From Streptantibioticus parmotrematis (lineage in GTDB: Bacteria; Actinomycetota; Actinomycetes; Streptomycetales; Streptomycetaceae), in assembly GCF_019890615.1 (NCBI RefSeq), contig NZ_JAINVZ010000022.1:1-64000 (forward strand): a stretch of 64,000 nucleotides of DNA. The letters run 5' to 3'. The stretch's first letter is position 1. Every line of letters begins with the position of its first letter. The notes under the pieces are model-generated. The model was not told the DNA's origin and did no database searches. It saw only the letters and a list, made by a program, of their open reading frames with translations. Below, piece after piece: positions 23,817-41,817 of the stretch. Both the position numbers and the translations under genes were made by a program.

Positions 23817-24087
23817 CGTAGGCTCTCGAAAGGTCTTCGAACGGGAGATTCGACCGGAAACCGGGATCCGGCAGGCAGACGCCGCATCCACGCCTGGGTG
23901 ACCGCTACGGCGGCGCGCAGGCGCCCAAAAGGATGCCGATTTCCCGCCAAAGACCGCCGCCAAACCCGCCCGAGAGTGTGACGTACGCGACGACGGCCCC
24001 TCGTAACCTGCGCCGACCCTCCCGGTAGGCGTAGCCTTTATTTCCGCTGTCCACCACCTTGTGAAGCGGAAGAGGGCGGTTGCCGCC

Positions 24088-27000: not shown

Positions 27001-27948
27001 CAGCGGCACGCGGTGCTGGTCGACCGGGTCACCGGCGAGGACTACACCCCGCTGCTGTACCTGTCGGACGAGCAGGCCCGGTTCAACGTCTACGACTCGC
27101 TGCTGAGCGAGTACGCGGCGATGGGCTTCGAGTACGGCTACTCGCTGGCCCGGCCCGAGGCGCTGGTGCTGTGGGAGGCGCAGTTCGGTGACTTCGTCAA
27201 CGGCGCGCAGAGCGTCGTCGACGAGTACGTCTCGGCGTCCGAGCAGAAGTGGGGCCAGACCTCCGGCGTCACGCTGCTGCTGCCGCACGGCTACGAGGGC
27301 CAGGGCCCGGACCACTCCTCGGCCCGCCCGGAGCGTTTCCTCACGCTGTGCGCGCAGAACAACATGACGATCGCGATGCCGACGCTGCCGTCGAACTACT
27401 TCCACCTGCTGCGCTGGCAGGTCCACAACCCGCACCACAAGCCGTTGATCGTCTTCACCCCGAAGTCGATGCTGCGGCTGAAGGCGGCGACCTCGAAGGT
27501 GGAGGAGTTCACCTCCGGCGGCTTCCGCCCGGTCATCGGCGACGACACGGTCAACGCGGACGACGTGCGCAAGGTGGTGTTCTGCTCCGGCAAGGTCTAC
27601 TACGACCTGAAGGCGGAGCGGGAGGCCCGCAAGGCGGACGACGTGGCGCTGATCCGCATCGAGCGGCTCTACCCGCTGCCCGGCGCGGAGATCCAGGCCG
27701 CGCTGGCGCCGTTCACCAAGGCGCAGAAGTTCGTGTGGGCCCAGGAGGAGCCGGCGAACCAGGGTGCCTGGCCGTTCATCGCGCTCAACCTGATCGACCA
27801 CCTCGACCTGGTGCTCGGCGCGGCGCCGGACAACGCGGACCGGCTGCGCCGGGTGTCGCGCCCGTCCTCCTCGTCGCCCGCGGTGGGCTCGGCCAAGCGC
27901 CACCAGCAGGAGCAGCAGCAGCTGGTGCGTGAGGTCTTCGAGATCTGA
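24088..27948 (+). CDS. kgd: Multifunctional 2-oxoglutarate dehydrogenase E1/E2 (KGD)
   Basis: 1286 residues from GTG 24088 ([10 protein letters not shown]); an in-frame GTG at 24061 lacks a ribosome site. Actinobacterial fusion: a short E1 N-terminal helix ([27 protein letters not shown]), an Ala/Pro/Lys linker (~68-165), an E2 acyltransferase domain with no lipoyl domain and the motif [11 protein letters not shown] (Asp379-His-Arg), then the thiamine-diphosphate E1 part ([50 protein letters not shown]). It decarboxylates 2-oxoglutarate in the TCA cycle; in mycobacteria it also makes 2-hydroxy-3-oxoadipate and is held by GarA. The 271-bp leader upstream has no gene. A strong terminator follows. 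Confidence 0.97.
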
Positions 27949-28029: not shown

Positions 28030-31017
28030 CTAGCCGGGCTGCGGTTCGAAGTCCCAGTACGGGCGCTTCCTGCGGCGCACCGACTGGGTGTGCGGGTGCT
28101 GCGGGCCGAGGGTCTCGGCGAGTTGCTGGAGGGTCTCGGTCTCCACCTTGGACGCCTCCTGGGTGCGCCGCAGCGCGCGCAGGTCGTCGGCGAGCGCGGC
28201 CCGGCAGGACAGGGTGAGCGGGTGGGTCTCGCCCAGCGAGGTCTTGGCCAGCGTGACGGTCTCGCGGCTCAGTCGGAGGGCGCCCTCCTCGTCCCCGGCG
28301 AGGCTTCGGGCGCCGGAGGCGTTGAGCGCGCAGCCCAGCGTCCAGGGGTGGGCGGCGCCGACGGCCTCCGTCATGCCGTGCAGGGCGCGTTCCGCGGCGG
28401 CCAGCGCCTCGTCGCGTTCGCCGTACGCGCGCAGCACCAGGCCGACGTTGCCCTCGGTGCCGACGGTGAACGGGTGGCCGGGGCCGGTCAGTTCGCGGTA
28501 GCGCTCGGCGACGGTGGTGGCCAGCTCCCGGGCCCGGTCGAGGTCGCCGTGCTGCCGGATGAACGTCGCGTAGTCGGCCTGCACCAGCAGGGTGTCCGGG
28601 TGCCGGGGTCCCTGCCGCTGCACGCAGCGGTCCACCACGCCCGCCATCAGCGTGTGCGCCTGCGCGATGTCCCCGCCGCGGCGCAGGCACAGGGCGAGGT
28701 TGTGCTCGGCGAACAGCGACTGCGGGGTGTAGCGGTCCATGACCTGGCGCAGCACGCGGACGTTGAGCTCCTGGCGGGAGGTGGCCTCGGTGTAGCGGCC
28801 GAGCAGCCGCAGCGTCCAGGCGTAGCGCTGCGCGGACAGCAGGGTGCGGTGGTGGCGCGGGCGCAGCGCCCGTTCGCGCACCAGCAGGATGTCCCGGTGC
28901 GCGGCGAGCGATTCCTCGTAACGGCCCAGCAGGGCGAGGACGTTGGCGAGGTTGCTGCGGTCCTGCATGGTGCGCATCGACTCGGGGCCGAGGATCTCGC
29001 TCCAGGCGCGGACCGAGTCGGCGAAGATGTCGTGCGCCTCCTGGTAGGCGCCGAGGGCGACGAGCGTGCCGCCCAGGCCGTTCTTGGCGCGCAGCAGGTC
29101 GGGGTCGTCGGGGCGGCGTTCCGCGGACAGCTGCTCGACGACGGCCCGGCCCATCGCCTGCGCCTCCTGGTAACGCCCGGCGCGGCGCAGCATGTTGGCG
29201 TGCTGGTGGACCAGGACCAGCAGGTCGGGGTCGTCCGGGGCGAGCCGGGGGCGCCAGCGGGCCACGGCCTGCTCGCACAGCCGCAGGCCGGTGCGGCTCT
29301 CGCCGCGCACCCGCAGGTACTCCACGCAGTTGAGGACCAGTTCGCGGCTGCCGGGTTCGGTGCCGGACAGCACGCCCGCGGTCTCCAGGTGCGGCAGCAG
29401 TTCGGCGTAGCGGGCCCAGGAGCGGGTGTCGGTGGGGTTGCGGGGGTCGGCGTCGGCGAGCACCCGGGCGGCGACCGCGGCCAGGGTCTCGCGGCGGTCC
29501 TCGCTGAGGGTGGACAGCAGGAAGCCGTGGTAGAGCCGGTGCATGGCGACCTGGTCCACGAACGGCTCGGACTCGTGCGCCTCCACGTAGTCCATCCGCA
29601 CGGCCGTGGACTCCGAGAGCCTGCGCAGCGCGGTGTGCCAGCGGATGGGGTCGGCGGCGAGCGCGGCGAGGTGCTCGGGCAGGCTGTCGGGGCGGGCCGA
29701 CTCGATGAGCCGGACCGGGATGGCCTCCGGGGAGAACAGCCCGAGCAGGTGCAGCAGTTCGACGGTCTCGGGGTGCTTGTCCTGGAGGGTGTTGAGCGTT
29801 ATCGACCAGGTCGTCTGGAATCCCATCGGGTAGTCCGAGGAGATGCGGATGCCGATCTGGTTGGCCTCGCCGCGCCGGATCAGCTCGATGTAGTCCTTGG
29901 CGGGCATGGGGTTGGCGGCGAGCCAGGCCGCGGTCTGGTTGAGCAGCAGCGGCAGGTCCTGGACGGCCTCGGCGAGCTGGTCGGCCTCCGGTTCGGTGAG
30001 CCGCTGCGCGCGGCGCCTGGCGTACGCGACGCTCTCCTCGCGCCGGAACGGCGCCACCTCGACCTCGGTGACGCTGCCGGCGGCGGCCCAGTCCTGGGTG
30101 AGGGTGGTGACGAGCACGTGGCCGTTGCCCTCGGGGACCAGGTCCTCGATCTGGGTGAGGTCGTCGGCGCTGTCCAGCACGATCAGCCAGCGGCGGTACG
30201 GGCGTCCGGTGCGCAGCGCCTCGTGCACCGCGCGGATGCGTTCGCCCAGCTCCTGGCCCGCGGGCAGGTCGAGGCGCGGGGCGAGGTCGGCGAACTGCTC
30301 GCGGGCGGTGGCGCGGTAGCCCGCGTTGGCCCACCACACGATGTCGTAGTCGTTGCCGAAGCGGTGCGCGTACTCGATGGCGATCTGGCTCTTGCCGACG
30401 CCGGAGATGCCGCGCAACGCGACCCGGGCGCCCTGCCTTCCGCCCTCCTCGAAGCGCCGGTGGATCTCCTCCAGCACCGCGTCGCGGCCGGTGAAGCGCA
30501 CGTTGCGGCGCGGTACGTTCCACACCGCCGGGGGGTCGTTGGGGAAGCGCGGGACGGCGGCGCCGGCCGGTTCGTCGGCCTGGGTCGCCGGGTCGATGCC
30601 GAGCCTGCGCAGTATCCGGCGGCGCGCCTCGTGCTCGTCGAGGTCGCGCAGGTCGACCGGGCGCAGCGCGGCGGCGGTGGGCGGCAGCGCGCGGGTCGCG
30701 ACGCTGACGGCGGCGAACCGCTCGGCGTCGGCGGGCACCACCTCCCCCAGCGCCTGCGTCCACTCGGTGTCGGTGCGCGGGCCGAGGGAGAAGTACCAGT
30801 CGTCCAGCACCAGCAGCACGCGCCCGGGCGCGGCGAGCAGGTCGCGCAGCGCGTCGGTCAGCGGCACGCTCAGCGGCGGGTCCCAGCGCAGCAACGAGGT
30901 CTGGTGGCCGAGGCGTTCGAGCTGGTGGGCGATCCAGGTCGCCCAGGGCCGGTTGTACCCGGCGTGGCTGATGGTGAAGTGGTCGGCTTCCTGCCCGTCC
31001 GACGTCCGCTGAGCCAT
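28030..31017 (-). CDS. fxsT: TIR-like / NB-ARC / tetratricopeptide protein (FxsT-like, FxSxx-COOH system)
   Basis: 995 residues from ATG 31017 (GGGGAGAG ribosome site). Residues ~10-135 are TIR-like (HFTISHAGYNRPWATWIAHQL), with Glu85 in DTEWTQAL where TIR NADases keep their catalytic Glu. Residues ~160-500 are an NB-ARC NTPase: Walker A GISGVGKS at 203-210, Walker B RWLIVLDSADD, LPLLLNQTAAWL. From ~510 onward are about ten TPR units (GRYEESLAAHRDIL, GDIAQAHTLMAGVV). This is the layout of the TPR protein of FxSxx-COOH RiPP systems and of STAND conflict proteins. It is the last gene of the 28-40 kb unit, 124 bp after the radical SAM gene. Confidence 0.88.
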   Translation of the reverse strand: MAQRTSDGQEADHFTISHAGYNRPWATWIAHQLERLGHQTSLLRWDPPLSVPLTDALRDLLAAPGRVLLVLDDWYFSLGPRTDTEWTQALGEVVPADAERFAAVSVATRALPPTAAALRPVDLRDLDEHEARRRILRRLGIDPATQADEPAGAAVPRFPNDPPAVWNVPRRNVRFTGRDAVLEEIHRRFEEGGRQGARVALRGISGVGKSQIAIEYAHRFGNDYDIVWWANAGYRATAREQFADLAPRLDLPAGQELGERIRAVHEALRTGRPYRRWLIVLDSADDLTQIEDLVPEGNGHVLVTTLTQDWAAAGSVTEVEVAPFRREESVAYARRRAQRLTEPEADQLAEAVQDLPLLLNQTAAWLAANPMPAKDYIELIRRGEANQIGIRISSDYPMGFQTTWSITLNTLQDKHPETVELLHLLGLFSPEAIPVRLIESARPDSLPEHLAALAADPIRWHTALRRLSESTAVRMDYVEAHESEPFVDQVAMHRLYHGFLLSTLSEDRRETLAAVAARVLADADPRNPTDTRSWARYAELLPHLETAGVLSGTEPGSRELVLNCVEYLRVRGESRTGLRLCEQAVARWRPRLAPDDPDLLVLVHQHANMLRRAGRYQEAQAMGRAVVEQLSAERRPDDPDLLRAKNGLGGTLVALGAYQEAHDIFADSVRAWSEILGPESMRTMQDRSNLANVLALLGRYEESLAAHRDILLVRERALRPRHHRTLLSAQRYAWTLRLLGRYTEATSRQELNVRVLRQVMDRYTPQSLFAEHNLALCLRRGGDIAQAHTLMAGVVDRCVQRQGPRHPDTLLVQADYATFIRQHGDLDRARELATTVAERYRELTGPGHPFTVGTEGNVGLVLRAYGERDEALAAAERALHGMTEAVGAAHPWTLGCALNASGARSLAGDEEGALRLSRETVTLAKTSLGETHPLTLSCRAALADDLRALRRTQEASKVETETLQQLAETLGPQHPHTQSVRRRKRPYWDFEPQPG

Positions 31018-31063
31018 GGGACTCTCCCCTCACCTCGCCGGTCGCGGCCCGCGGGCCGCTCGG

Positions 31064-31091
31064 GTTCCAACGGGGTTCCAACAGTTCCAAG
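31064..31091 (-). promoter_or_regulatory. Triple GTTGGAAC direct repeats upstream of the NB-ARC gene
   Basis: Read on the minus strand, GTTGGAAC occurs at 31082-31075 and 31071-31064, and CTTGGAAC at 31091-31084, spaced 9 and 11 bp. They lie 47-74 bp upstream of the ATG in a 124-bp gap. They may be operator half-sites, or GGAAC -35 elements of an ECF-type promoter. The same octamer recurs upstream of the MoxR gene. Confidence 0.45.
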
Positions 31092-31141
31092 GGTGGTCTT
31101 CGCACGATAGCCGAAGTGACCGGCGACCGGCCGACGCCACG

Positions 31142-32383
31142 TCAGATGACGTCCACCCGTGTGGAGTTCACCGCCGCCGGGGCGGCCGTCGGGGCCGCCG
31201 ACGCGCGCACGGTGTCGTGCGGCAGCGCGGACGACAGGGCGTGCGCGATGTGCCGGATCAGCCGTTCGAGGTCGGCGCAGTACACGGAGGGGTGGGCGAA
31301 TCCCGAGCCCTCGCGGTAGCGGTGCGCGTAGTTGCCGCCGCCGCACACCCGCACCACCGGGCAGCCCCGGCAGACGGCGGCGAGCGCGGCCGCGCCGAGC
31401 TGGCGGGCGGCGATGCCGGGGTGCGCCAGCGCCTCGTCGAAGCTGTGGTGGTGGACGTCGAGTCCGGTGACGGTGGCGCGGTCGTAGGCGACCTTGAGGG
31501 AGTCGATCTGGGCGATCGAGCCGTCGGTCTCCACGACCACGGCGACGGTGGGCGACAGGCCCACCGACTCGGTGGCGCTCGGCACGCCCAGCAGCAGGCC
31601 GACGATCTCGGTGAAGAGCCGCACGCGCGGGTGCGGCCGCTCGTCCGGGTCGCGGTTCCACCACAGGTCGAAGACGGCGGCGAGCCAGTCGCCGTACGGG
31701 GTGGCCGAGCGCGGGGCGTCCTCGGGGCGCGGCGGCGGGCTGGACCAGTTGGCGTGCGGCAGCAGCAGGTCGAGCCGGGGCGGGCGCAGCGCGAGCAGGG
31801 AGCGGTAGACCTCGGCGGGGTCGGCGCGCACGTCGACCGCGCACAGCAGTCCCGCGTACGCCTCGGGGTGCTCGGCCAGCAGCCGGGCGGCGCGGGAGGC
31901 GGCGGGCCAGGAGGGGCGTCCGGCGTGGTCGACGCGGTGGCGGTTGAGGGTGGCGGTGCCGCCGTCCAGGCTGATTCCGACGCCGATGCCCGCCTCGGTG
32001 AGCCGGGCGAGGGCGGAGCGGGTGAGCCGCGTGCCGTTGGTCTGCACGGCGGCGTGCACCACCCGGTCGGGGCCGACCGCCTCCCGGATCGCGGCGGTGT
32101 AGGCGAGCACCTCGCCGGGGCCGGACATCAGGGGTTCGCCGCCGTGCAGGTCGATGCGCAGCTCGCGCAGGCCGTGGGCGCGGGCGTGTTCGGCGACGCG
32201 TTGCGCGGTGCGGGCCATGGTGGCCTCGCTCACCCGCGCCGGGCGGTCCCGCCAGCCGGTGTCACGGCCGTGGTAGAGGCAGCAGTAGGTGCAGCTGAGG
32301 TTGCAGCGGCCCCGCACCTTGAGCACGAACTGCCGGAAGGGCGCGCGGGGCGCGAAGGGTACGAGGGGCACGGCTGCGGGCAC
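31142..32383 (-). CDS. fxsB: FxsB-like radical SAM/SPASM peptide maturase
   Basis: 413 residues from GTG 32383, chosen for GGAGGTGA five bases upstream. The radical SAM core has Cys27, Cys31 and Cys34 in GRCNLSCTYCCLYHGRD, with an extra Cys35 next to the third cluster ligand. LRIDLHGGEPLMS is the GGE SAM-binding motif and GVGISLDGG a later core strand. A C-terminal SPASM region follows (AAVCRGCPVVRVCGGGNYAHRY, VYCADLERL) for auxiliary clusters. FxsB relatives link an aromatic side chain to a nearby residue in a three-residue cyclophane. The candidate substrate peptide is encoded 203 bp upstream on the same strand. The extra Cys and the substrate's unusual end suggest a divergent subfamily. 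Confidence 0.9.
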   Translation of the reverse strand: MPAAVPLVPFAPRAPFRQFVLKVRGRCNLSCTYCCLYHGRDTGWRDRPARVSEATMARTAQRVAEHARAHGLRELRIDLHGGEPLMSGPGEVLAYTAAIREAVGPDRVVHAAVQTNGTRLTRSALARLTEAGIGVGISLDGGTATLNRHRVDHAGRPSWPAASRAARLLAEHPEAYAGLLCAVDVRADPAEVYRSLLALRPPRLDLLLPHANWSSPPPRPEDAPRSATPYGDWLAAVFDLWWNRDPDERPHPRVRLFTEIVGLLLGVPSATESVGLSPTVAVVVETDGSIAQIDSLKVAYDRATVTGLDVHHHSFDEALAHPGIAARQLGAAALAAVCRGCPVVRVCGGGNYAHRYREGSGFAHPSVYCADLERLIRHIAHALSSALPHDTVRASAAPTAAPAAVNSTRVDVI

Positions 32384-32586
32384 GGCGTCACCTCCTGTCC
32401 GGCGGGCATCCCCCGCTGTCGACCGTCGGCGGGCGGTCCCATGCCGGGCATCGCCGCGCGGCAGGCTGGAAAAACGTTTCGTGACCACAACTGACCGGTT
32501 AGGCACGCTCGTTGACTCAAAGCCTGACGATTTCGGCCAGCACTGCGACCGGATGTCCGCCCAACGCGTCCTCGTAGAGCGGGCGT

Positions 32587-32832
32587 TCAGTCCACCGCGC
32601 GCATGTCCGGGGCGTCCTCGTGGTACGCGGCGGCCTCGCCCGGCCTGCGGGAGCGGGCCGCGAGCCCGGGCAGCACGGCGGCGAGCGCCGGATGGCTGAC
32701 GCGCGGCAGCAGGTCGTCGAGGTCGACCCCGGTGAAGTCGGGGAGCGCCTCGCGGCTGGGGGCCGGGCCGTGGCCGGGTTCGGGGAGCGTCGCCCCGGCA
32801 CCGCCCGGCGCGGCGCCGACCGCATGGTTCAT
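32587..32832 (-). CDS. Putative cyclophane RiPP precursor (FxsA-like, FxSxx motif replaced)
   Basis: 81 residues from ATG 32832, with GAGGAG nine bases upstream. Residues 31-60 (PDFTGVDLDDLLPRVSHPAL...) match the leader style of FxsA peptides, which typically read 'D-SG-L-L...LA..L'. Typical FxsA proteins end in FxSxx-COOH; this one ends in YHEDAPDMRAVD, with Tyr70-His71-Glu72-Asp73. His-x-Asp and Tyr-x-Asp are known cyclophane sites in related triceptide families, so H-E-D is a candidate crosslink site. It lies between the vWA protein gene and the FxsB-like maturase. An open stretch in the next frame continues past its stop (see findings). Confidence 0.62.
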   Translation of the reverse strand: MNHAVGAAPGGAGATLPEPGHGPAPSREALPDFTGVDLDDLLPRVSHPALAAVLPGLAARSRRPGEAAAYHEDAPDMRAVD

Positions 32833-32850
32833 CACGCCGTACTCCTCACT

Positions 32851-32882
32851 GCCCGTCGAGCCGACCGCCCGTCGAGCCGACC
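32851..32882. repeat. Tandem 16-bp repeat in the leader of the precursor gene
   Basis: GCCCGTCGAGCCGACC occurs twice without a gap, at 32851-32866 and 32867-32882, 19-50 bp upstream of the precursor ATG in the 130-bp gap after the vWA gene. It may be an operator or a local duplication. Confidence 0.6.
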
Positions 32883-32962
32883 GGACCGGGATACCCCCGT
32901 GGTGGCCGCCGGGAAACCTCTCGCCCACTGTCGTCCCGTCCGTCCCGTCACCGCGCCGCCCG

Positions 32963-35900
32963 TCACACGGTGTCGCCCAGCGCCCGCATGCGCTCCAGCG
33001 TGGAGCGGGCCTGCGGTCCCCTGGCCGCGCCGGCGTGCTGCCACAGCGCCCAGGCCGCGCGGTACGACTCCAGGGCGCGCGCCGGGCCCGCCGTCTCCTC
33101 CAGGACCGTGCCCCGGCAGTGGTGGGCGCGCGCGCCGAGCAGTTGATCGCCCGCCGACGCCGCCTGCCCGGCCGCGCGGTGGTACGACTCGGCCGCCGCG
33201 TCCAGCCGTTCCGGGGCGCCCGAGGCGAGGCCGAGCAGCACGTCACCGCGCTCCAGCCACGCCTCGGCCGCCGTGGCCGGATCGGCGCGGGCCGGGTCGG
33301 CGGCGGCCCGCGCGGCGCGGGCGAGTATCCACTCGGCCTCGTGCAGGTCGGTCAGCGCGCCGCCCGCCTCGTTCCGGCGGCGCAGCGCCCGGCCGAACAG
33401 CAACCGCCGCTCGGCCAGCAGCGGATGGCTCTCCGGCGTCTGCGCCAGCGCCTCGCGCAGCACCCGCACCGCGTCGGTGGCCACCGCGATCCCGCCGCCC
33501 CGGCCCGCCCACTCCACCAGCACCCTGCCGCGGTCCACCAGCAGGTCGGCGCGGGCCGGGTCGTCGGTGGCCACCAGGCGCTGGGCGGCGGCCAACGCGT
33601 CGTCCGCCTCGGCGAGTTCGGTGACCCGGGCGGTGCGGGCGTAGCGGGCGGCGTGCGCGAGTCCGAGGCGGCGCAGGCACTCCAGCCGCAGATCGCCGTC
33701 GTCGTGCGCGCACCGCAACGCCCGCTCCAGGTCCTCCACGGCCTCCGGGGCGCCCTGGTCACCGGCGGCCATCGCACGGGCGGCGGCCAGGTCGAGCAGC
33801 GCGGCGACCCGCGAGGCGCGCTCCGGCGCCTCCTCGCTCGTCGCGTCGGCGTCCGCCACCGTCTCGAAGTCCGCCACCGCCTGGAGGGCGAACGCCCGCG
33901 CCTCGTCGGTGGCGTCCCGCCGCGTCGCGTCCTCGGACAGCGCCGACAGCAGCGCGCCGCGCACCGACAGCGGGCCGCGCGGCATCGGGGCGTCCGGCGG
34001 CCACGACTCCAGGACGACGTCCAGCAACGCCTGGGCGCCGTACAGGAGATGGCGGTCACCGGTGAGGGCGTAGCGCTCCCTCGCCACGTCCACCAGGCAC
34101 AACCGCGCCGCGAGCAGGTCGTCCGGCGCGCCCAGCAGCAAGTGTTCCGCGCGGGTCAGGCTCGCGTCGGCGTCGGCGAGGGAGCGCGCGGCGCCCGCGG
34201 AGTGCGGCGGCGACTGGCCCGCCACGACCCGCAGCACCCGGCCCAGCACCAGGTGCGCCCGGCCCGCCGCGGCGTCCGGCACCGCGGCCCGGTCCGCGAG
34301 TTCGGCGGCCGACCGCGCGGTGCGCTCCGCCTCGGCCAGCGCGTCGTCGCCCTGCCGCGCCTCCCACAGGCTCAGCAGGCACTCGGCGAGCAGCGTGCGC
34401 AGCGGGACGGTCCTGGCGGGCTGCCGTTCGTCGGCGGGCGCGGTGCGCAGCAACCGGATGGCCTCCCACAGGTCGCGGATCGTGCGCCGCTCGTGGAACT
34501 TCGCCAGCCGCTCGCGGGCCTCCTCCACCACCCGCCCCTGATGACCGAACGGCACCCCGCCCGACGGCACCGCCACCGCCGCCGGGTCCTGCCCGTACGC
34601 GTCGAGCACGGCCGGTCCCACGCCGCCGGGCTGGAAGCGGCGCAGCACCTTCTGCGGCACCTCGGCGAACGGCCGGGGCACCGGCACGCCGCCGCTCTCC
34701 CCCGGGTCGGGCGGCCCGCCCTCGCCGGAGAGGTAACCGACCACCATCGCGGGGAAGTTGCGCGCCCTGCGGCCGAACACCCGCTCCACGTACAGCGAGC
34801 AGTGCTTGAGCACGAGCGTCGCCTCGCCCAGGCCCAGCCGGCGCAGCAGCACCTCCTCCACGCCCGGCGCGAAGTCGTACCACGGCCCGCCCTCGCGGCG
34901 CAGGGTCTCCGCCGGGGTGTCCTCCTGCCGCAGCAGCAGCCCGCTGAGCAGCACCTCGGCCATCTCGATGGGTCCGGTCTGCGGCATCATCGCGCGCTGC
35001 ACCAGCTGCATCACCGGGTACGCGAGCGGCGCCGCCGACAGGTACACCGCCAGGTGCTGCGCGGCGGGCGAGGAGACCGCCTGGAAGTCCTGCACGAGTT
35101 GTTCCGCGGTGCGCTCGCGGCGCGGCGGCGGCGCGGCGCCGACGTGCCGGTCGTGCACCCAGGCCGCGGCGGCGTCGAGGGTGGCCAGGGTGGTGCCGGA
35201 CACCGCGTGCGCCCAGGCGCCCAGCGCGCCCCGGGTCGGCGACAGCACCGGCACCGCGAGCGCCCCCGGCGAGTGTTCCGGCGAACGGCGCCTGCGGGGC
35301 AGGAACTCCAGGCGACCGCCCGCCGCGGACGTCCCGCGCAGCACGCCGGGCTCGGCGGGCAGCAGCGTGCGCCGCCACATGCGCTGCGGCAGCGGCTGGA
35401 GCACCGCGACCGGGCCGGTGCGCGCCCACCGGTGCAGCAGCCGCTGCGCCGCGCCGCGCCGCCACAGCAGCCCGGAGCAGTCGCTGAGCAGGAGCGTGAC
35501 GGTGCGCCCGGTCGGGTCGCGCAGCCGGTCGGCCGGGGAGAGCGTCTCGTCCCCGCCGCGTCCCGCCGCCACCCCCGGTTCGCCGTCGGGCCGCGGGCGC
35601 AGGTAGTGCACGGCGACGTCGCGGAACGCGCCGACCTGCTCGCAGACCAGCCGCAGTTCCTCCAGCATCTGGTCCCAGACCACCATCGACGGCGAGTCGT
35701 CCATGACCAGCAGCAGCCGCGCGTCGCGCCGCCTGACCTCGCGGAAGACCGGCAGTATGTGGCCGCTCCTGGCGCTGGTCTCGGCGGTCGCCATCTCGTC
35801 CAGCTCGCTGCCGCGGCGCGCCCTGACGTGCGGCCGGTAGCGTTGCAGGGGACGCAACGCCCGCTCCAGCGGCAGCAGTTGGGGGAACGCGTTGGCGACC

Positions 35901-36265
35901 GGCACCCGGATCTGGAGGGCCTCGTCCAGCGTGATCGGCTCGGTCTCGCGCACGGCGTGGATCGGCACGGTCGGGTTGGCCGCGTCGGCGCCGTCGCCGC
36001 CTTCGTCGCCCTCGCCGCTCCTGTCGCCCGTCGACGCGTCGTGCCCGGGCGGCGCCTGATCGCCCGTCCCGGCACCGTCCACCGCACCAGACCGGTCGTC
36101 ACCGATTGTGGCCGGATCCTGCCCCTGCGTGGCCGCGTCCGGGTCGCCTGCGGCCATCTGACCCGACAACCACAGCGCGTCCGCCAGCCCCTCGGCGTCG
36201 GTGGCGATCCCCGCCCGGCGCAGCCTCGCCACGAGCTGCGCGAACAGGTCCGAGCCGGGGGCCAC
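32963..36265 (-). CDS. SAV_2336-type vWA-domain / TPR-like protein of a VMAP ternary system
   Basis: 1100 residues from GTG 36265, six bases after the MoxR stop. Residues 1-40 are the SAV_2336-like N-terminus (LFAQLVARLRRAGI..GLADALWL); an acidic linker follows. Residues ~180-330 form a vWA-like domain: LLLVMDDSPSMVVWDQM keeps the MIDAS DxSxS (Asp189, Ser191, Ser193), followed by TLLLSDCSGLLWRRG. The second half is helical, with many TPR-like repeats (ARADLLVDRGRVLVEWA, AEAWLERGDVLLGLA). vWA proteins of this kind work with MoxR ATPases as metal-dependent adaptors. Established family context: vWA-MoxR-VMAP conflict systems. Confidence 0.85.
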   Translation of the reverse strand: MAPGSDLFAQLVARLRRAGIATDAEGLADALWLSGQMAAGDPDAATQGQDPATIGDDRSGAVDGAGTGDQAPPGHDASTGDRSGEGDEGGDGADAANPTVPIHAVRETEPITLDEALQIRVPVANAFPQLLPLERALRPLQRYRPHVRARRGSELDEMATAETSARSGHILPVFREVRRRDARLLLVMDDSPSMVVWDQMLEELRLVCEQVGAFRDVAVHYLRPRPDGEPGVAAGRGGDETLSPADRLRDPTGRTVTLLLSDCSGLLWRRGAAQRLLHRWARTGPVAVLQPLPQRMWRRTLLPAEPGVLRGTSAAGGRLEFLPRRRRSPEHSPGALAVPVLSPTRGALGAWAHAVSGTTLATLDAAAAWVHDRHVGAAPPPRRERTAEQLVQDFQAVSSPAAQHLAVYLSAAPLAYPVMQLVQRAMMPQTGPIEMAEVLLSGLLLRQEDTPAETLRREGGPWYDFAPGVEEVLLRRLGLGEATLVLKHCSLYVERVFGRRARNFPAMVVGYLSGEGGPPDPGESGGVPVPRPFAEVPQKVLRRFQPGGVGPAVLDAYGQDPAAVAVPSGGVPFGHQGRVVEEARERLAKFHERRTIRDLWEAIRLLRTAPADERQPARTVPLRTLLAECLLSLWEARQGDDALAEAERTARSAAELADRAAVPDAAAGRAHLVLGRVLRVVAGQSPPHSAGAARSLADADASLTRAEHLLLGAPDDLLAARLCLVDVARERYALTGDRHLLYGAQALLDVVLESWPPDAPMPRGPLSVRGALLSALSEDATRRDATDEARAFALQAVADFETVADADATSEEAPERASRVAALLDLAAARAMAAGDQGAPEAVEDLERALRCAHDDGDLRLECLRRLGLAHAARYARTARVTELAEADDALAAAQRLVATDDPARADLLVDRGRVLVEWAGRGGGIAVATDAVRVLREALAQTPESHPLLAERRLLFGRALRRRNEAGGALTDLHEAEWILARAARAAADPARADPATAAEAWLERGDVLLGLASGAPERLDAAAESYHRAAGQAASAGDQLLGARAHHCRGTVLEETAGPARALESYRAAWALWQHAGAARGPQARSTLERMRALGDTV

Positions 36266-36271
36266 GACGGC

Positions 36272-37309
36272 TCACCTCACCCGGTTGAGGGGCTGCATGA
36301 GTTCGTCGGCGAGGCGCTCGCGCGTGCCGACGTCCTCGTCCCCGGCCTGCTGGGTGAGGTAGATGGCGTTGAGCAACTGGTCCGCGGAGCGCTGCTCGCC
36401 GGGCCTGCGGTCCAGGAACTGCTGGATGATGGCCCGGTTGCGCTCGGCGGCCTCGGGCCCGAAGTGGGCGCGGACCATCGCCGCGAGCCGGTCCTCGTCC
36501 GGGGTGTCGAGCCGCAGGTGGATACAGCGCCTCAACAGCGGTGCGGGGAAGTCGCGTTCACCGTTGCTGGTCAGCACGACGAACGGGAAGGCGCGGCAGC
36601 GGATCCGCCCGCCGCGCACGGTGACCCGGCCGCCGTCGTCGTCCTGCACCTCGACCTCGGGGTGGCGGTCGGCGATGCGTTCCAGCTCCGGGATGGCGAA
36701 CTCCCCTTCCTCCAGGGCGTTGAGCAGGTCGTTGGGCAGGTCGATGTCGCTCTTGTCGAGTTCGTCGACGAGCAGGACCCGGGGGCGGGCGGCGGGCAGC
36801 AGCGCGGTGCCGAGCGGGCCGAGCCGGATGTAGCGGCCGATGCCGTCGCCGGGCGAGGTCTCCTGGGTGCCGGGGCCGAGGCACTGCTCCGGCTGCGCGG
36901 TGCGGGCGAGCTGGAGGTCCTGGAGGCGGGCCAGGGCGTCGTACTGGTAGAGCCCGTCGCGCAGCACGGTGCGGCTGACGATCGGCCAGCGCAGCACCCG
37001 GCCCAGGCCCAGTTCGTGCGCGACGGCGTGGGCGAGGGTGCTCTTGCCGCACCCCGGCTCACCAGTGACCAGCAGGGGCCTGCGCAGATACAACGCGGCG
37101 TTGACCAGCTCCAGTTCGGTCGGCCGGGGGCGGTACTGCTCGGCCAGGTCCTGCTGGAGGCCGAGCCTGCGGGTGGACGCGGTGTCGATCGGCGCCGGGG
37201 CGCTCACCACCGGGTGCCCGTCGAAATTGCGCCACGGCGGCGGGGCAGGCAGACGGTCTATCCCCCCGTGGGGCTGGCCGGTGCCTCGGTAGATCAGCCA
37301 TTCGTTCAC
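36272..37309 (-). CDS. MoxR-family AAA+ ATPase
   Basis: 345 residues. Walker A is GEPGCGKS at residues 83-90; Walker B is RVLLVDELDKSDIDLPNDLL; sensor 1 is VVLTSNGERDFP and an arginine finger follows in PAPLLRRCIHL. The N-terminal 50 residues (WLIYRGTGQPHGGIDRLPAPPPW) are typical of ATPases in VMAP loci. It should remodel or activate a partner, most likely the vWA protein encoded six bases downstream. A 199-bp gap separates it from the upstream protease gene, and that gap holds one GTTGGAAC element, so an internal promoter is likely. Confidence 0.93.
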   Translation of the reverse strand: MNEWLIYRGTGQPHGGIDRLPAPPPWRNFDGHPVVSAPAPIDTASTRRLGLQQDLAEQYRPRPTELELVNAALYLRRPLLVTGEPGCGKSTLAHAVAHELGLGRVLRWPIVSRTVLRDGLYQYDALARLQDLQLARTAQPEQCLGPGTQETSPGDGIGRYIRLGPLGTALLPAARPRVLLVDELDKSDIDLPNDLLNALEEGEFAIPELERIADRHPEVEVQDDDGGRVTVRGGRIRCRAFPFVVLTSNGERDFPAPLLRRCIHLRLDTPDEDRLAAMVRAHFGPEAAERNRAIIQQFLDRRPGEQRSADQLLNAIYLTQQAGDEDVGTRERLADELMQPLNRVR

Positions 37310-37508
37310 ATCGCGCTCCTCGTCGCGGTACGGGCCGGGGCCCGGGGTTCGAGGGCACTGCCGCCGCGGTCACGCACGCCGCACGCGCTCGCGCGCACAT
37401 ACGTGTCCGTCACGCACACAAGGGGATACCGCACGCGGAACCCCCTTCTATGACAGTACCCAGCCAGGACGGTTCCAACGACGGTTTCCGGACGCGGGTG
37501 GGAGCGCC
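37310..37508 (-). promoter_or_regulatory. Internal promoter region upstream of the MoxR gene
   Basis: On the minus strand GTTGGAAC (37479-37472) is followed at a 17-base spacing by GTCATAG, resembling a GGAAC/GTC promoter of the ECF type. The same octamer stands in three copies before the NB-ARC gene, suggesting shared control of the two halves of the locus. Nothing else is seen in this gap. Confidence 0.4.
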
Positions 37509-39530
37509 TCACGCGTGCGCCCCGTACCCCGCGCCGAGATCGGGCAACGGCGCGTCGGCGTCGTCGTAGAGCAGCACCAACTGCTCGGCGCACGACGGCC
37601 GCCCGTCCGGCGCGCCCTGGCGCAGATCGTGCGCCTGGGCGCGCAACGCCCGTACCGCCTCGGGGAGTCCGGCCGCGTCGCCGACCCCGGCCAGCAACGC
37701 GTCGGTGACGTGCCGGAACGCCACGCAGTCGGGGCCGCATTCGGCACGCGGGTGCGGCGCACCGCGCCACAGCGCCACGCCGTGGCCCGCGTCGAGCACG
37801 TCCATCATGATGCTCAGGCCCTCGCCCTGCCCTGCGGGCCCGCACAGCACGGGCACCGACTCCGGCGGCGCGTTGCGCAACTTGCCGTATCCGGGCGTGC
37901 GGTCGAGCACCTGCAACGGCAACGGGGTCAGCCCTCCGCGCCTGCCCAGCCCCGCCCACCGCTCGCGCCACTCCGGGGTGGGCGGCACGCGTTCCACGTC
38001 GCGCATCACCACCGGCCGGCGGGCGCCCATCGGCCGGGCCGGGCGGTGCGGCCGGTCGCGCAGCCCTCCGCCGGGCACCCACAGATGGGCGGCGGTGTCG
38101 AAGTGGTGGACGGGCAGCGCGATCTCCACGGTGGCCGGGTGGCCGGAGCGGTCGGCGCGGTCCAGGGCGAGCGCCAGCGGTTCCTGGACCTGCGCGACGG
38201 CCTCGTCGAACTCCACGCCGTCGCGCTCGTCGCAGACCGTGGTGATCTGCCGGTCCTCGGCCGAGCGCACCAGCTGGATCTCCCAGCGGAAACGCACCGG
38301 CAGGTTCTCCTCCCACACCACTGGCGCCAGCGCCACCAGCACCGAGGCGGGCCCTGCGCCGCCCTCCCGCTCGGGATCGGCGCGCTCCAGTTCCACCAGC
38401 CGCTGGCGGTCCGGCGCGGGCAGCGATATCGCCCGGCTCATCGCGAACTCCCGTACCCGCGCGGCGCCTTCCGGATCCTGCGACTGCACCTCGTCGGCGA
38501 CCAGCGTCAAGTAGGTGACGAACGCCAGCAGTTGCTTGCCGTCGTCCGGCTCGTACAGCAGCCCGTGGCCGTCCCGCCAGGCGACCGGCAGCGGATCGTG
38601 CACGGTGCCGGGCCCCAGCACCCGTTCCACCAGGCGCTGTACGACACCGGCGCTGCTGGGCGGCGGCAGTTCGGCCAGCAGTCCGAGGGCGCGGGCGCGG
38701 TCGAACGGGGTCCACTCGCCGATCACGTCGGACAGCTGCCCCTGCACGTCGATCCAGGTCGCCCGGGCCGAGGCCCGGGGCTGCTGGCGTTCGTAGTGCC
38801 AGCGGTCGTGGGCGCGCACCAGCTCCTGGTACGGGTCGGCGCCCAACGCCAGCGCCGGAGCGAGCGGTTCGGACTCGGTCAGCGCGCGCAGCGCCGTCAG
38901 CAGCACCGCCTTGCCGCCGTCACGGGTGCGACGCCGCGCCTTGACCACGCCGACGACCCTGCCGTGCGCGAGGTCGACCACCAGGCTCCCGGAGACGCCG
39001 GCCGGGATCTCGGAGTCGGGGCCGAGCCGGAAGACGTGCAGCGAGTCGTTGCCGGGGACGGTGCAGGTGCCGTCCCAGGGTTCGAGTTCACCGCCGGGCC
39101 CGCGCCAGCCGAGCGCCGCGACCCGGGCGCTGACCGGCGGCACCGCGCGGTCGCTGAGCCACACGCAGCCGTGCCGGACCGGCTGGGTGAGCCTGATCAG
39201 GGCGAGATCGGGGGCGAGTTCGTACTCCCGCTCGTCGCCGAACTCCCGCCCCGCCGTCATCGTGTCCGGGTCGGGTAACGCGTAGACCGCCCGGCCCGGC
39301 ACCGTGCGCTCGCCGATCCGCACTCCGATCTCGTGGTCGCCCGCCCAGCGCTTGCGGCCCAGGCTGTCCTTGCGCACCAGCACGTGCGCGCAGGTCAGCA
39401 CCCACTCGGGCGCGACGAGCAGTCCACTGCCCCAGAAGGGCGCGGTGCCGTACGGGGCGGCCTGGATGGCGACGGAGACCTCTCGGGCCAGCTCGCGCAG
39501 TCTGCTCTCGGCCTCGGACGGCGGGCTCAC
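37509..39530 (-). CDS. Trypsin-like serine protease with VMAP-type C-terminal domain
   Basis: 673 residues from GTG 39530. Residues ~15-205 are a trypsin-like domain with an intact triad: His49 in VLTCAHVL, Asp108 in APDLALIRL and Ser180 in IPAGVSGSLVV. There is no signal peptide, so it acts in the cytoplasm. The rest matches the VMAP C-terminal type (vWA-MoxR-associated): PPPSSAGVVQRLVERVLG, VEIALPVHHFDTAAHLW, GAPHPRAECGPDCVAFRHV. In VMAP systems the protease is the predicted executor, held by the ATPase/vWA pair. It starts 12 bases after the stop of the small Trypco1-like gene. Confidence 0.88.
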   Translation of the reverse strand: MSPPSEAESRLRELAREVSVAIQAAPYGTAPFWGSGLLVAPEWVLTCAHVLVRKDSLGRKRWAGDHEIGVRIGERTVPGRAVYALPDPDTMTAGREFGDEREYELAPDLALIRLTQPVRHGCVWLSDRAVPPVSARVAALGWRGPGGELEPWDGTCTVPGNDSLHVFRLGPDSEIPAGVSGSLVVDLAHGRVVGVVKARRRTRDGGKAVLLTALRALTESEPLAPALALGADPYQELVRAHDRWHYERQQPRASARATWIDVQGQLSDVIGEWTPFDRARALGLLAELPPPSSAGVVQRLVERVLGPGTVHDPLPVAWRDGHGLLYEPDDGKQLLAFVTYLTLVADEVQSQDPEGAARVREFAMSRAISLPAPDRQRLVELERADPEREGGAGPASVLVALAPVVWEENLPVRFRWEIQLVRSAEDRQITTVCDERDGVEFDEAVAQVQEPLALALDRADRSGHPATVEIALPVHHFDTAAHLWVPGGGLRDRPHRPARPMGARRPVVMRDVERVPPTPEWRERWAGLGRRGGLTPLPLQVLDRTPGYGKLRNAPPESVPVLCGPAGQGEGLSIMMDVLDAGHGVALWRGAPHPRAECGPDCVAFRHVTDALLAGVGDAAGLPEAVRALRAQAHDLRQGAPDGRPSCAEQLVLLYDDADAPLPDLGAGYGAHA

Positions 39531-39542
39531 CCGCGGCCCCCG

Positions 39543-39983
39543 TCAGGCATCGCCGCCTCCGGGCGCGGGCGGCACGGCCGGCAGGGGCGGCGGCTGGGGC
39601 GGTTGTTGCTGCTGCGTCGGTACGGGGGCGGGCTCGCGGAACCGGTCCCGCCAGGTCAGCGTGACCTTCAGGCCGCTGGTCGCCTCCCCGTCCGCCAGCA
39701 CGCTGACGATCGCGCCGGACTTGACCGCGAACTCGACCCCGAACTCCACGCTGACCTCGTCGGGCGCGGCCTGCGCCGCCGCGTCCCGCACCGAGGCGGC
39801 GACCCCGGTGATCAGCGCGCGCAGGTTGCGCACCCGGGCGATCGCGCCGTCGAGCGCGCCGACGTCCTCGTAGTCGCCGTAGTCGTCCTCCGCATCGGCG
39901 GCGTCCGGCAACGGCACGGGCGACATCCGGGCCCACACCTGCGTGCCGTCCGGCAATTCGATCAGCCGAGCGAGCTCCCCCAT
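39543..39983 (-). CDS. Trypsin-co-occurring domain protein (Trypco1 / CU044_2847 type)
   Basis: 146 residues from ATG 39983 (GGAGGG eight bases upstream). The core is a beta-rich domain: MGELARLIELPDGTQVWARM, then DEVSVEFGVEFAVKSGAIVSVLADGEATSGLKVTLTWR, matching the small CU044_2847/Trypco1 family found beside cytoplasmic trypsin-like proteases. The last 30 residues are Gln/Pro-rich (QQQQPPQPPPLP) and disordered. It is the first gene of the 28-40 kb unit. Its role is probably recognition or regulation of the protease; this is inference. Confidence 0.82.
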   Translation of the reverse strand: MGELARLIELPDGTQVWARMSPVPLPDAADAEDDYGDYEDVGALDGAIARVRNLRALITGVAASVRDAAAQAAPDEVSVEFGVEFAVKSGAIVSVLADGEATSGLKVTLTWRDRFREPAPVPTQQQQPPQPPPLPAVPPAPGGGDA

Positions 39984-40123
39984 CGCCACCGCCCTCCAAC
40001 CCGCGGACCCCGTAAGCAAAGTTGACGCAAGATCAGGCTAGCCCGCTGAAGCCCGGGGGCGCGAGAGGTTCCCGCTGCGCGCCGGGTCGCTCCGTGGCGG
40101 GCCTCTGCATGGGGCCTGCTTTC

Positions 40124-40886: not shown

Positions 40887-40946
40887 TTGACTTTCGCGAT
40901 ACGCGATATATCGTGAAGGTCGACGACGCGATATGTTGCGTCGTCG
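40887..40946 (+). promoter_or_regulatory. Promoter and palindromic operators of the DUF4097/PadR operon
   Basis: TTGACT (40887-40892), 16 bases, then TATCGT (40909-40914) forms a good promoter. CGCGATATATCGTG (40902-40915) is a near-perfect palindrome over the -10. A second palindrome, CGACGACGC-N8-GCGTCGTCG (40921-40946), covers the start of the transcript. The PadR protein encoded second in the operon is the natural candidate for autoregulation here. Confidence 0.65.
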
Positions 40947-40968
40947 CAGTCGCCAGCGGGAGGCCTGG

Positions 40969-41817
40969 ATGTCAGCGCAGAGTTGGACCGTCTCGGAACG
41001 GCAGAAGATCCCCTTCGAAGGGCCGGTCACCGATCTCCACGTCCGGATCGTCGGCGGCACGGTCAACGTCGTCGGCACCGAGGACCCCGGCGCGTGCCTG
41101 GAGGTCTCCGAGGTCGACGGGCCGCCGCTGATCGTCACCCGGGACGGTTCCGAGCTGACCATCGCGTACGAGGACCTGCCCTGGAAGGGCCTGCTGGGCT
41201 GGCTCGACCGCAAGAGCTGGAAGCGGCACGCGGTGGTCTCGCTGACCGTCCCGGCCGCGACCCGGGTCGAGGTCGGCGTGGTCTCGGCCGAGGCCGTGGT
41301 CACCGGCATCAGCGGCCGCACGGCGGTGCGTGGCGTCAACGGCGGCACCACCCTCGTAGGGGTGAGCGGCCCGGTGGACGCGAGCACCGTCTCGGGGGCG
41401 CTGGAGGCGCAGACCCTCTCCGGTGACCTGAAGTTCAGCACCGTCTCCGGCGGCCTGACCGTCGTCGAGGGCACGGGAGCACGGGTGAAGGCGGACTCCG
41501 TCAGCGGTGACATGGCACTCGACCTGGACCCGGCGGGCGGCGGCGACGTCCACCTCAACACCGTCTCCGGCGAGATCGCCATCCGGCTGCCCGACCCCGG
41601 TGACGCGCGGGTGGACGCCAACACCGCCAGCGGCGCGGTCACCTGCGCGTTCGAGGAGCTGCGGGTCACCGGCCAGTGGGGTGCCAAGCGCATCTCCGGC
41701 CGGGTCGGCAAGGGCGACGCGCTGCTGAAGGCGACGACCGTCTCGGGTGCCATCGCGCTGCTGCGCAGGCCGCCACGGGAGACCGACGAACCCCTCTCGT
41801 TGCGGAAGGACGCCTGA
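40969..41817 (+). CDS. DUF4097 family beta-strand repeat protein
   Basis: 282 residues from ATG 40969 (GGGAGG five bases upstream). After a 60-residue N-terminal part (FEGPVTDLHVRIVGGTVNVVG), short repeated strands follow: VSAEAVVTGISG, VSGPVDASTVSGALEAQTLSGDLKFSTVSG, VSGDMALDLDPAGGGDVHLNTVSGEIAIRLP. This is the DUF4097 right-handed beta-helix-like pattern. There is no signal peptide or membrane helix, so it is cytoplasmic. The PadR gene follows with a one-base gap, so the two are co-translated. A paralogue lies at 48072-48914. Confidence 0.92.
   Translation: MSAQSWTVSERQKIPFEGPVTDLHVRIVGGTVNVVGTEDPGACLEVSEVDGPPLIVTRDGSELTIAYEDLPWKGLLGWLDRKSWKRHAVVSLTVPAATRVEVGVVSAEAVVTGISGRTAVRGVNGGTTLVGVSGPVDASTVSGALEAQTLSGDLKFSTVSGGLTVVEGTGARVKADSVSGDMALDLDPAGGGDVHLNTVSGEIAIRLPDPGDARVDANTASGAVTCAFEELRVTGQWGAKRISGRVGKGDALLKATTVSGAIALLRRPPRETDEPLSLRKDA

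What the first reader, a model, noticed from the sequence alone, without database searches (positions are those of the whole stretch)
28030..39983. Hybrid locus: VMAP-type protease/MoxR/vWA system joined to a radical SAM RiPP module
Seven minus-strand genes encode Trypco1, trypsin-VMAP protease, MoxR ATPase, SAV_2336-type vWA/TPR protein, FxsA-like peptide, FxsB-like maturase and TIR/NB-ARC/TPR protein. From family knowledge, vWA-MoxR-VMAP sets are predicted conflict systems and FxsB/FxsT belong to a cyclophane RiPP pathway. The trypsin triad (His49/Asp108/Ser180), MIDAS and Walker motifs are all intact, so nothing looks decayed. My inference is that the modified peptide is a ligand, trigger or protease substrate within one system, perhaps sensed by the NB-ARC protein.
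Basis: partly seen in the sequence, partly recalled or inferred. Interest (0 to 1): 0.78.

Follow-up and report, generated by a model that had tools for sequence, protein, structure and literature searches.

The report
Immune-like protease locus with modified peptide
A seven-gene bacterial locus combines a protease-and-ATPase "alarm" module with a small, probably chemically modified peptide and an immune-receptor-like protein; the pairing was already in print, but this is a variant with a different peptide tail, and relatives suggest the genes are inherited largely as one unit at one chromosomal site.

Summary
All seven genes are there and intact. The hybrid is not new: Kaur et al. 2020 (PMC7159879) describe VMAP-ternary systems joined to an FxSxx/radical-SAM module plus a TIR-AP-ATPase-TPR gene and already propose the peptide as toxin or signal. 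What comparison adds: (1) Co-inheritance: linked FxsB and vWA genes each fall on one side of a branch, distances co-vary beyond neighbouring sucA, and sucA adjoins the block in 44 of 54 loci; in 19 of 20 sampled genomes without it sucA and the DUF4097 flank are 0.3-6 kb apart. Two partly occupied sites and seven loci elsewhere qualify this. (2) The peptide is not FxSxx-type: its tail Y-H-E-D-A-P is a His variant of the YxD-tail lineage, under that model's cut-off. (3) 16 of 16 linked loci with a HExxH gene have Phe-x-[N/S/D/A] tails; 38 of 38 without it have [Y/H/F]-x-[D/N]. (4) The published model's metallopeptidase is thus absent here; the VMAP trypsin is the only recognised peptidase. Best reading, untested: an intracellular alarm in which the modified peptide is ligand or safety-catch for the NLR-like FxsT.

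The parts
39543..39983 (-). Trypco1 (trypsin-co-occurring domain 1) protein, 146 aa
   Evidence: PF19493 68.5 bits and NF041216 70.3 bits on the ORF 39543-40019; ATG at 39983
37509..39530 (-). VMAP protein: N-terminal HtrA/trypsin-like protease, helical middle region, VMAP-C domain, 673 aa
   Evidence: PF13365 and PF20028; triad conserved in 49 of 49 aligned proteins; AlphaFold2 model pLDDT 83.5 whose best PDB matches are DegP/HtrA-type proteases
36272..37309 (-). MoxR-like AAA+ ATPase, 345 aa
   Evidence: AAA_5 30.2 bits; P-loop Gly-Lys-Ser and Walker B Asp-Glu in 51 of 51
32963..36265 (-). SAV_2336-type vWA protein with long C-terminal TPR superhelix, 1100 aa
   Evidence: NF041121 450 bits over residues 23-499; MIDAS Asp189 in 53 of 56, other 3 gapped; Ser193 is Ala in 4; model C-terminus matches TPR superhelices
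32587..32832 (-). Precursor peptide, 81 aa, leader LPDFTGVDLDDLL...HPALAAVL and tail A-A-Y-H71-E72-D73-A-P; predicted crosslink His71-Asp73
   Evidence: NF041709 50.6 bits, residues 29-75; 38 precursors incl. the window's carry [YFH]-x-[DN] in register
31142..32506 (-). FxsB-family radical SAM/SPASM maturase without HExxH extension (ORF 454 aa; true start probably later, nearest relative 404 aa)
   Evidence: TIGR04269 427 bits; CxxxCxxC and four SPASM Cys in 56 of 56; solved relative ChlB 9gm3 259 bits
28030..31017 (-). FxsT: TIR, NB-ARC, TPR (NLR-like) protein, 995 aa
   Evidence: NF040586 837 bits; TIR_2 62 bits; NB-ARC 24.7 bits; P-loop Lys 54 of 55, TIR Glu85 46 of 55
24061..27948 (+). Flank, not part of the system: sucA/kgd (2-oxoglutarate decarboxylase/dehydrogenase), convergent; marks one edge of the occupied site
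   Evidence: NF008907 2113 bits; next matched gene beyond FxsT in 44 of 54 comparable loci
40933..41817 (+). Flank, not part of the system: DUF4097/LiaG-like gene marking the other edge
   Evidence: PF13349 44.7 bits; 0.3-6.0 kb from sucA in 19 of 20 sampled genomes lacking the locus

Best explanation
The locus is one intracellular alarm module, a variant of the Fxs-linked VMAP-ternary system. FxsB probably links the aromatic residue at position 71 (here His) to the beta-carbon of Asp73 of the precursor, giving a rigid three-residue ring near the C-terminus (inferred from family chemistry and the aligned motif). The MoxR-vWA pair with Trypco1 holds the VMAP trypsin inactive until a stimulus is sensed (Kaur model, inferred). 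Once active, the trypsin acts on the modified peptide or on a partner; the ring-bearing tail is then the ligand, or the removed safety-catch, that makes FxsT oligomerise and fire its TIR domain (inferred). Shown: gene content, conserved catalytic residues, motif register, co-inheritance, a preferred site with empty counterparts, absence of the HExxH enzyme. Not shown: every functional step.
For: Conserved triad 49 of 49 and MoxR Walker residues 51 of 51 imply selection for proteolysis and ATP use. FxsB and vWA trees each keep the linked genes on one side of a branch; partial correlations given sucA are 0.65-0.93, 0 of 499 permutations as high. The block sits between sucA and DUF4097 in most linked loci, and 20 of 20 sampled sites without it hold no match to the seven proteins. 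Motif [YFH]-x-[DN] in 38 of 38. The HExxH family is described as alphaKG hydroxylase (PMC12636437, abstract and passages; NCBIfam name) and no such gene lies between FxsB and FxsT here (gap 124 nt; relatives), so the trypsin is the only recognised peptidase. No transporter family was matched by the seven.
Against: No title in the listings of my paper searches was an experiment on a VMAP or FxsT protein (most subscription papers are not held). TIR Glu85 is missing in 9 of 55 FxsT proteins. The trypsin may instead cleave the vWA protein, as Kaur propose. L036 shows MoxR, vWA, precursor, FxsB and FxsT but no trypsin or Trypco1 match within 5 kb upstream, so the trypsin cannot be essential everywhere unless it lies elsewhere. 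G043 has lost FxsB and G017 has only the VMAP half. Residence beside a TCA-cycle gene and a constant TPR effector fit housekeeping or development as well as defence.
Confidence: 0.4

Rival explanations
1. The modified peptide is an exported toxin or cell-cell signal that amplifies the VMAP response (one of the options of Kaur et al. 2020).
For: Proposed in print; some cyclophane RiPPs act outside cells (recalled).
Against: None of the seven proteins matched a transporter family. Signal peptides were not tested.
Confidence: 0.15
2. The ring-bearing peptide is a safety-catch: bound to FxsT or the vWA protein it keeps the system off, and destruction or lack of modification (for example by an invader) releases it.
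For: Leader and tail both conserved; guard-type logic is common in NLR systems (recalled); in the five loci with a second FxsB a second precursor precedes it.
Against: G043 keeps VMAP, HExxH gene and FxsT but shows no FxsB and no aromatic-x-D/N tail, so loss of the modification is evidently survivable there.
Confidence: 0.2
3. Not antiviral: a developmental or stress-response regulator of cell death kept in the core chromosome.
For: sucA next to the block in 44 of 54 loci; FxsB has no phage-record match (E <= 1e-10) and only matches under 50% identity in 12 plasmid records; constant TPR effector instead of the hypervariable ones Kaur describe.
Against: Patchy: 23 of 80 genomes have the linked pair; VMAP protease and vWA TPR part diverge more than MoxR and FxsB.
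Confidence: 0.2
4. Two modules that merely sit side by side.
For: 67 of 90 FxsB and 62 of 85 SAV_2336 matches are not linked; G017 has the VMAP half alone beside DUF4097, and G043 at the sucA site lacks FxsB.
Against: Linked ones stay together in both gene trees, co-vary beyond sucA, and 20 of 20 sampled sites without the pair show no match to any of the seven proteins (G017 and G043 were not among those 20).
Confidence: 0.07

Closest known systems
Fxs-linked VMAP-ternary systems (Kaur, Burroughs, Iyer, Aravind 2020, eLife 9:e52696; PMC7159879)
   Same: Same gene kinds: Trypco, trypsin-VMAP, MoxR, vWA with TPR, small precursor, radical SAM/SPASM, separate TIR-AP-ATPase-TPR gene downstream (text read; figure not held)
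   Different: They type the peptide as FxSxx and give a zincin metallopeptidase as core of the peptide module; here the tail is HxD and no HExxH gene is present
YxD-tail triceptides matured by YxdB (Sugiyama et al. 2022, not held; known here through passages of the review PMC11002830)
   Same: Leader and [aromatic]-x-Asp tail in the same register; NCBIfam NF041709 covers residues 29-75
   Different: His at the ring position; score 50.6 under the cut-off of 55; the review passages seen do not mention VMAP
FxSxx-COOH / FxsB systems with HExxH beta-hydroxylase, ChlB/ChlH (original papers not held; described in passages of PMC12636437)
   Same: FxsB-family maturase; solved ChlB radical SAM domain is a 259-bit relative
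   Different: No HExxH domain or gene in the window locus; FxSxx motif absent
NLR-like bacterial STAND/TIR proteins
   Same: TIR, NB-ARC and TPR in one protein
   Different: Matches the FxsT subfamily NF040586, named for the FxSxx-COOH system

Membership tests
VMAP-ternary conflict system (Kaur 2020) | VMAP protein with VMAP-C domain and N-terminal peptidase | tested here: met
   PF20028 124.8 bits, PF13365 38.3 bits
VMAP-ternary conflict system (Kaur 2020) | MoxR AAA+ ATPase gene adjacent | tested here: met
VMAP-ternary conflict system (Kaur 2020) | vWA protein with MIDAS | tested here: inconclusive
   NF041121 450 bits and conserved DxSxS, but no Pfam vWA hit and the fold search was dominated by TPR matches
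VMAP-ternary conflict system (Kaur 2020) | Highly variable effector domains on the vWA protein | tested here: not met
   The C-terminal part aligns through the linked set (mean identity 0.42 and 0.51 in the two kinds, gap fraction 0.06). Kaur themselves note that the FxSxx kind carries TPRs only, so this is a trait of the subtype
VMAP-ternary conflict system (Kaur 2020) | Acts against invaders | not testable with these tools
   no experiment
YxD-tail cyclophane RiPP peptide (NF041709) | Score over the curated cut-off | tested here: not met
   50.6 against 55; the YYDDAP relative L046 also falls short at 49.4
YxD-tail cyclophane RiPP peptide (NF041709) | Tyr-x-Asp tail | tested here: not met
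   His-Glu-Asp in register; Tyr in 24, His in 8, Phe in 6 of 38
FxSxx-COOH peptide (TIGR04268) | C-terminal F-x-S-x-x and score over cut-off | tested here: not met
   ends MRAVD; 25.0 bits against 28
FxsB maturase (TIGR04269) | Score over cut-off and radical SAM CxxxCxxC with SPASM cysteines | tested here: met
   427 against 370; Cys 68, 72, 75, 379, 382, 388, 410 in 56 of 56
FxsB maturase (TIGR04269) | Forms a cyclophane on its precursor | not testable with these tools
   needs mass spectrometry and NMR
FxsT (NF040586) | Score over cut-off | tested here: met
   837 against 300

The most novel reading that the evidence does not exclude
A dedicated RiPP, a His-Asp (or Tyr-Asp) cyclophane tail, serves inside the cell as the endogenous ligand of a bacterial NLR (FxsT), with release or removal controlled by a MoxR-vWA-gated trypsin: a ribosomal, chemically locked alarm peptide as part of innate immunity or programmed death.
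Probability: 0.3. Interest if true: 0.88.

Novelty: new variant of a known kind. Interest (0 to 1): 0.52.

Why it matters
If true, it would give FxsT-type NLR proteins a defined, synthesisable ligand and show a use for a class of triceptides whose roles I found nothing about. The comparison also revises one part of the published model: the putative peptide-processing metallopeptidase is missing from one lineage and belongs to an alphaKG hydroxylase family in the other, so the VMAP trypsin becomes the testable candidate. The preferred chromosomal site with empty counterparts makes deletion and transplantation experiments simple to design.

Tried and rejected
My first ORF choices for peptide and protease (32517-32825 and 37306-38715) were the wrong frame; corrected. 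The idea that the peptide had simply decayed from FxSxx (tail MRAVD) was dropped once relatives showed the conserved [YFH]-x-[DN] motif a few residues earlier. A Tyr70-centred ring is less likely: the residue two after it is variously E, D, G, S or A, while the residue two after position 71 is D in 36 and N in 2 of 38. The motif TTGGAAC occurs in the window only in gaps of this locus, but among linked loci recurs in the gaps looked at only in L034 (twice) and L121 (once), and 8 of 100 shuffles of the window gave as many sites. A Trypco2 gene in loci lacking Trypco1 was looked for; in those seen there was only an opposite-strand small ORF that I recall as DUF6104, untested. The fold search of the vWA protein was uninformative for its vWA part. 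Matches of the YxD model outside the window's family (19 genomes, 21-27 bits) were taken as noise without inspection; the rows shown of that search had 17 candidates scored per genome, so it is not exhaustive. Of 22 YxD-model matches in 80 genomes, 12 cover only the leader and are Phe-tail precursors, so the model overstates the YxD count. Loci L084-L110 (27 of the 77 named ones, distant relatives) were not analysed beyond.
Full report
WHAT IS THERE. The window's minus strand holds seven intact genes between 28030 and 39983: Trypco1, trypsin-VMAP protease, MoxR, SAV_2336-type vWA/TPR protein, precursor peptide, FxsB and FxsT. Gaps between them are 12, 199, 6, 130, 80 and 124 nt. The block is bounded by sucA/kgd (stop at 27948) and, after a short plus-strand ORF that I read by eye, a DUF4097 gene at 40933. 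The genome has one SAV_2336 match, one VMAP-C match and one FxsB match over the cut-off, all in this block.

ALREADY IN PRINT. Kaur et al. 2020 (PMC7159879; outline, passages, section 24 whole and the first part of section 35 read) state that about 20% of actinobacterial VMAP systems carry a peptide module, that FxSxx-type peptides come with a radical SAM/SPASM gene, that the vWA protein then has TPRs only and that a TIR-AP-ATPase gene lies downstream, and they suggest a peptide toxin or signal. The window locus has that plan. PMC10907252 (passages read) offers a different sensing order for VMAP systems. In the search listings I saw no held paper that joins triceptide or YxD terms with VMAP.

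THE PEPTIDE. The 81-aa precursor ends AAAYHEDAPDMRAVD. NCBIfam scores it 50.6 bits for the YxD-tail model (cut-off 55) and 25.0 for FxSxx-COOH (cut-off 28). Thirty-eight first-copy precursors of loci without HExxH, window included, all carry [YFH]-x-[DN]: ring-position residue Tyr 24, His 8, Phe 6; partner Asp 36, Asn 2; the preceding residue is Tyr in 33 and something else in 5. So the expected ring joins His71 and Asp73. A review reports a Tyr C3-Asp bond for YxdB and a His C2-Ala bond for HaaB (PMC11002830, passages read), so a His-Asp ring is plausible but unproven. Two precursors have two tandem cores (L058, L064), and five loci carry a second precursor-FxsB pair after FxsT (L035, L036, L045, L057, L079).

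CO-OCCURRENCE. In 80 genomes of the window's family there were 90 FxsB matches (E <= 1e-60, two of them under the curated cut-off) and 85 SAV_2336 matches (E <= 1e-20). Twenty-three FxsB lay within 8 kb of a SAV_2336 gene on the same strand: 0 of 39 with more than 500 bits, 23 of 51 with 500 or fewer (bits cut to whole numbers). Of 22 matches to the YxD model all 22 were beside FxsB and 21 beside SAV_2336; 12 of the 22 match by the leader only and are Phe-tail precursors, so 10 have a [YFH]-x-[DN] tail, 9 of them beside SAV_2336. By tail, the 23 linked loci are 9 of the window's kind and 14 of the Phe kind. The unlinked one, G071 (L159), still has a MoxR hit and a TIR/NB-ARC ORF fused behind what I read by eye as a vWA region. 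Across 394 genomes of the class, YxD-model matches of 29 bits or more occurred only in the window's family, 15 genomes, leader-only matches included; the rows shown had 17 candidates scored per genome, so this is not exhaustive.

HOW CONSTANT IS THE SET. Neighbourhoods were read in L034-L083 and L113-L168. Of 53 linked loci with a readable tail, 39 gave profile hits to all seven kinds, 32 of 37 of the window's kind and 7 of 16 of the Phe kind; one of the 7 (L122) counts only through a 24-bit Trypco1 hit beyond FxsT, so 10 of 16 Phe-kind loci lack Trypco1. L035, L045 and L050 lie at contig ends with little or no sequence before MoxR or the vWA gene; L036 does not, and shows no trypsin or Trypco1 match in the 5 kb before MoxR.

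CO-INHERITANCE. In a tree of 114 FxsB rows (fragments L052, L081, L082 and duplicates L117, L132 left out) the 60 VMAP-linked rows lie on one side of a branch with L159 alone, SH-aLRT 94. In a tree of 108 vWA N-terminal regions the 53 linked rows lie together with two unlinked genes, support 99; of 62 unlinked SAV_2336 matches 56 were fetched and 55 used (one cut by a contig end; the 6 weakest not fetched). The two are G043, which keeps VMAP, a HExxH gene and FxsT beside sucA but shows no FxsB and no aromatic-x-D/N tail, and G017, where the VMAP half stands beside DUF4097 and the vWA ORF runs into NRPS-like sequence, with no FxsB or FxsT match in the 18 kb taken. Both trees are quick ones, rooted at the midpoint for drawing only, with long branches flagged. 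Distance correlations among the five larger proteins are 0.76-0.95 in 49 loci and, with sucA held constant in 43 loci, 0.65-0.93, 0 of 499 permutations as high; correlations with sucA itself are 0.56-0.64.

ONE PREFERRED SITE. sucA is the next matched gene beyond FxsT (within about 1.7 kb) in 29 of 38 loci without and 15 of 16 loci with HExxH; 3 more have the DUF4097 flank only; 7 show neither flank (L035, L036, L045, L051, L057, L079, L134), among them all five loci with a second pair. Duplicates, L052 (no room) and the window are not in these counts; the window has both flanks. I searched DUF4097 in the window's genome and 35 of the 57 genomes lacking the linked pair; 34 of those 35 had a match. 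I fetched the flank in 20 of the 34, leaving out G017 and G043, which hold VMAP genes there, and 12 others. sucA was found in 19 of 20, 0.3-6.0 kb away, 10 of them under 0.7 kb, and 20 of 20 stretches gave no match to the seven proteins; G067 had no sucA in the stretch, and three stretches (G021, G038, G008) ended early at a contig end. In the window the flanks are 13 kb apart. So absence is clean, while G017 and G043 are partly occupied. FxsB had no match in phage records at E <= 1e-10 and matches under 50% identity in 12 plasmid records.

TWO LINEAGES. Between FxsB and FxsT, 16 of 16 complete loci with Phe-x-[N/S/D/A] tails carry a HExxH gene; 38 of 38 with [YFH]-x-[DN] tails, window included, do not. 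Loci were sorted by the gene, then tails compared. Tyr or His stands at or near the motif in 37 of 38 tails without the gene (exception L061) and in none of the 16 main motifs with it, though L118 has a further GFSH downstream. L079's first precursor was not resolved and L052 is cut short; both are left out. Two HExxH proteins tested match TIGR04267, alphaKG-HExxH peptide beta-hydroxylase, at 155 and 167 bits. PMC12636437 (abstract and passages read) says a radical-SAM-fused relative hydroxylates Asp and His after cyclophane formation, contrary to its metallopeptidase annotation; the same paper reports backbone cleavage by other HEXXH enzymes, so cleavage in the Phe lineage is not excluded. 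In the FxsB tree as drawn the Phe kind is a grade and the window's kind is nested, which suggests one switch with loss of the hydroxylase gene.

CONSERVED MACHINERY. Protease triad 49 of 49; MoxR P-loop Lys and Walker B Asp-Glu 51 of 51; MIDAS Asp 53 of 56 with 3 gaps; FxsB radical SAM and SPASM cysteines 56 of 56; FxsT P-loop Lys 54 of 55; TIR Glu 46 of 55. The protease model (15 sequences, pLDDT 83.5) has a DegP/HtrA-like domain. The vWA model is weaker (pLDDT 73.9, pTM 0.46) and shows a TPR superhelix. VMAP regions and the vWA TPR part are the most divergent (0.41-0.45 mean identity) and MoxR and FxsB the least (0.71, 0.68) in 33 loci of the window's kind.

MECHANISM. Shown: content, conservation, co-inheritance, preferred site, motif register. 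Inferred: FxsB makes the ring; MoxR-vWA gates the trypsin; the trypsin, the only recognised peptidase here, acts on the peptide or a partner; FxsT reads the result through its TPRs. I give 0.4 to ligand-or-release in the cell, with safety-catch alone, export and non-defence roles as rivals.

VERDICT. A sound observation of a published kind of system, with a variant peptide and new comparative evidence that it is inherited largely as a unit. Interest 0.52.

Noticed in passing
L035, L036, L045, L057, L079 (after FxsT): A second precursor-FxsB pair follows FxsT; the second FxsB copies group together (SH-aLRT 91). None of these five loci shows the sucA or DUF4097 flank. L041 has a second precursor without a second FxsB.
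   Followed up: partly
L058 and L064, precursor C-termini: Two tandem cores in one precursor (AYFSDAP...AYFADAP / AYFSDAP...AYFADTP).
   Followed up: no
   Followed up: partly
   Followed up: partly
   Followed up: partly
window 31064-31090 and 37472-37478, minus strand: All four TTGGAAC sites of the window lie in gaps of this locus, before FxsT and MoxR; among linked loci also in L034 (2) and L121 (1); 8 of 100 shuffles gave as many.
   Followed up: partly
L236, L238 and L242, between DUF4097 and sucA: Sites without the locus but with about 5-6 kb between the best flank matches (for L238 one search gave 1.3 kb with another match piece); content not examined.
   Followed up: no
L036, 5 kb upstream of MoxR: A locus of the window's kind with no trypsin or Trypco1 match before MoxR; what replaces the VMAP protein was not examined.
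   Followed up: no
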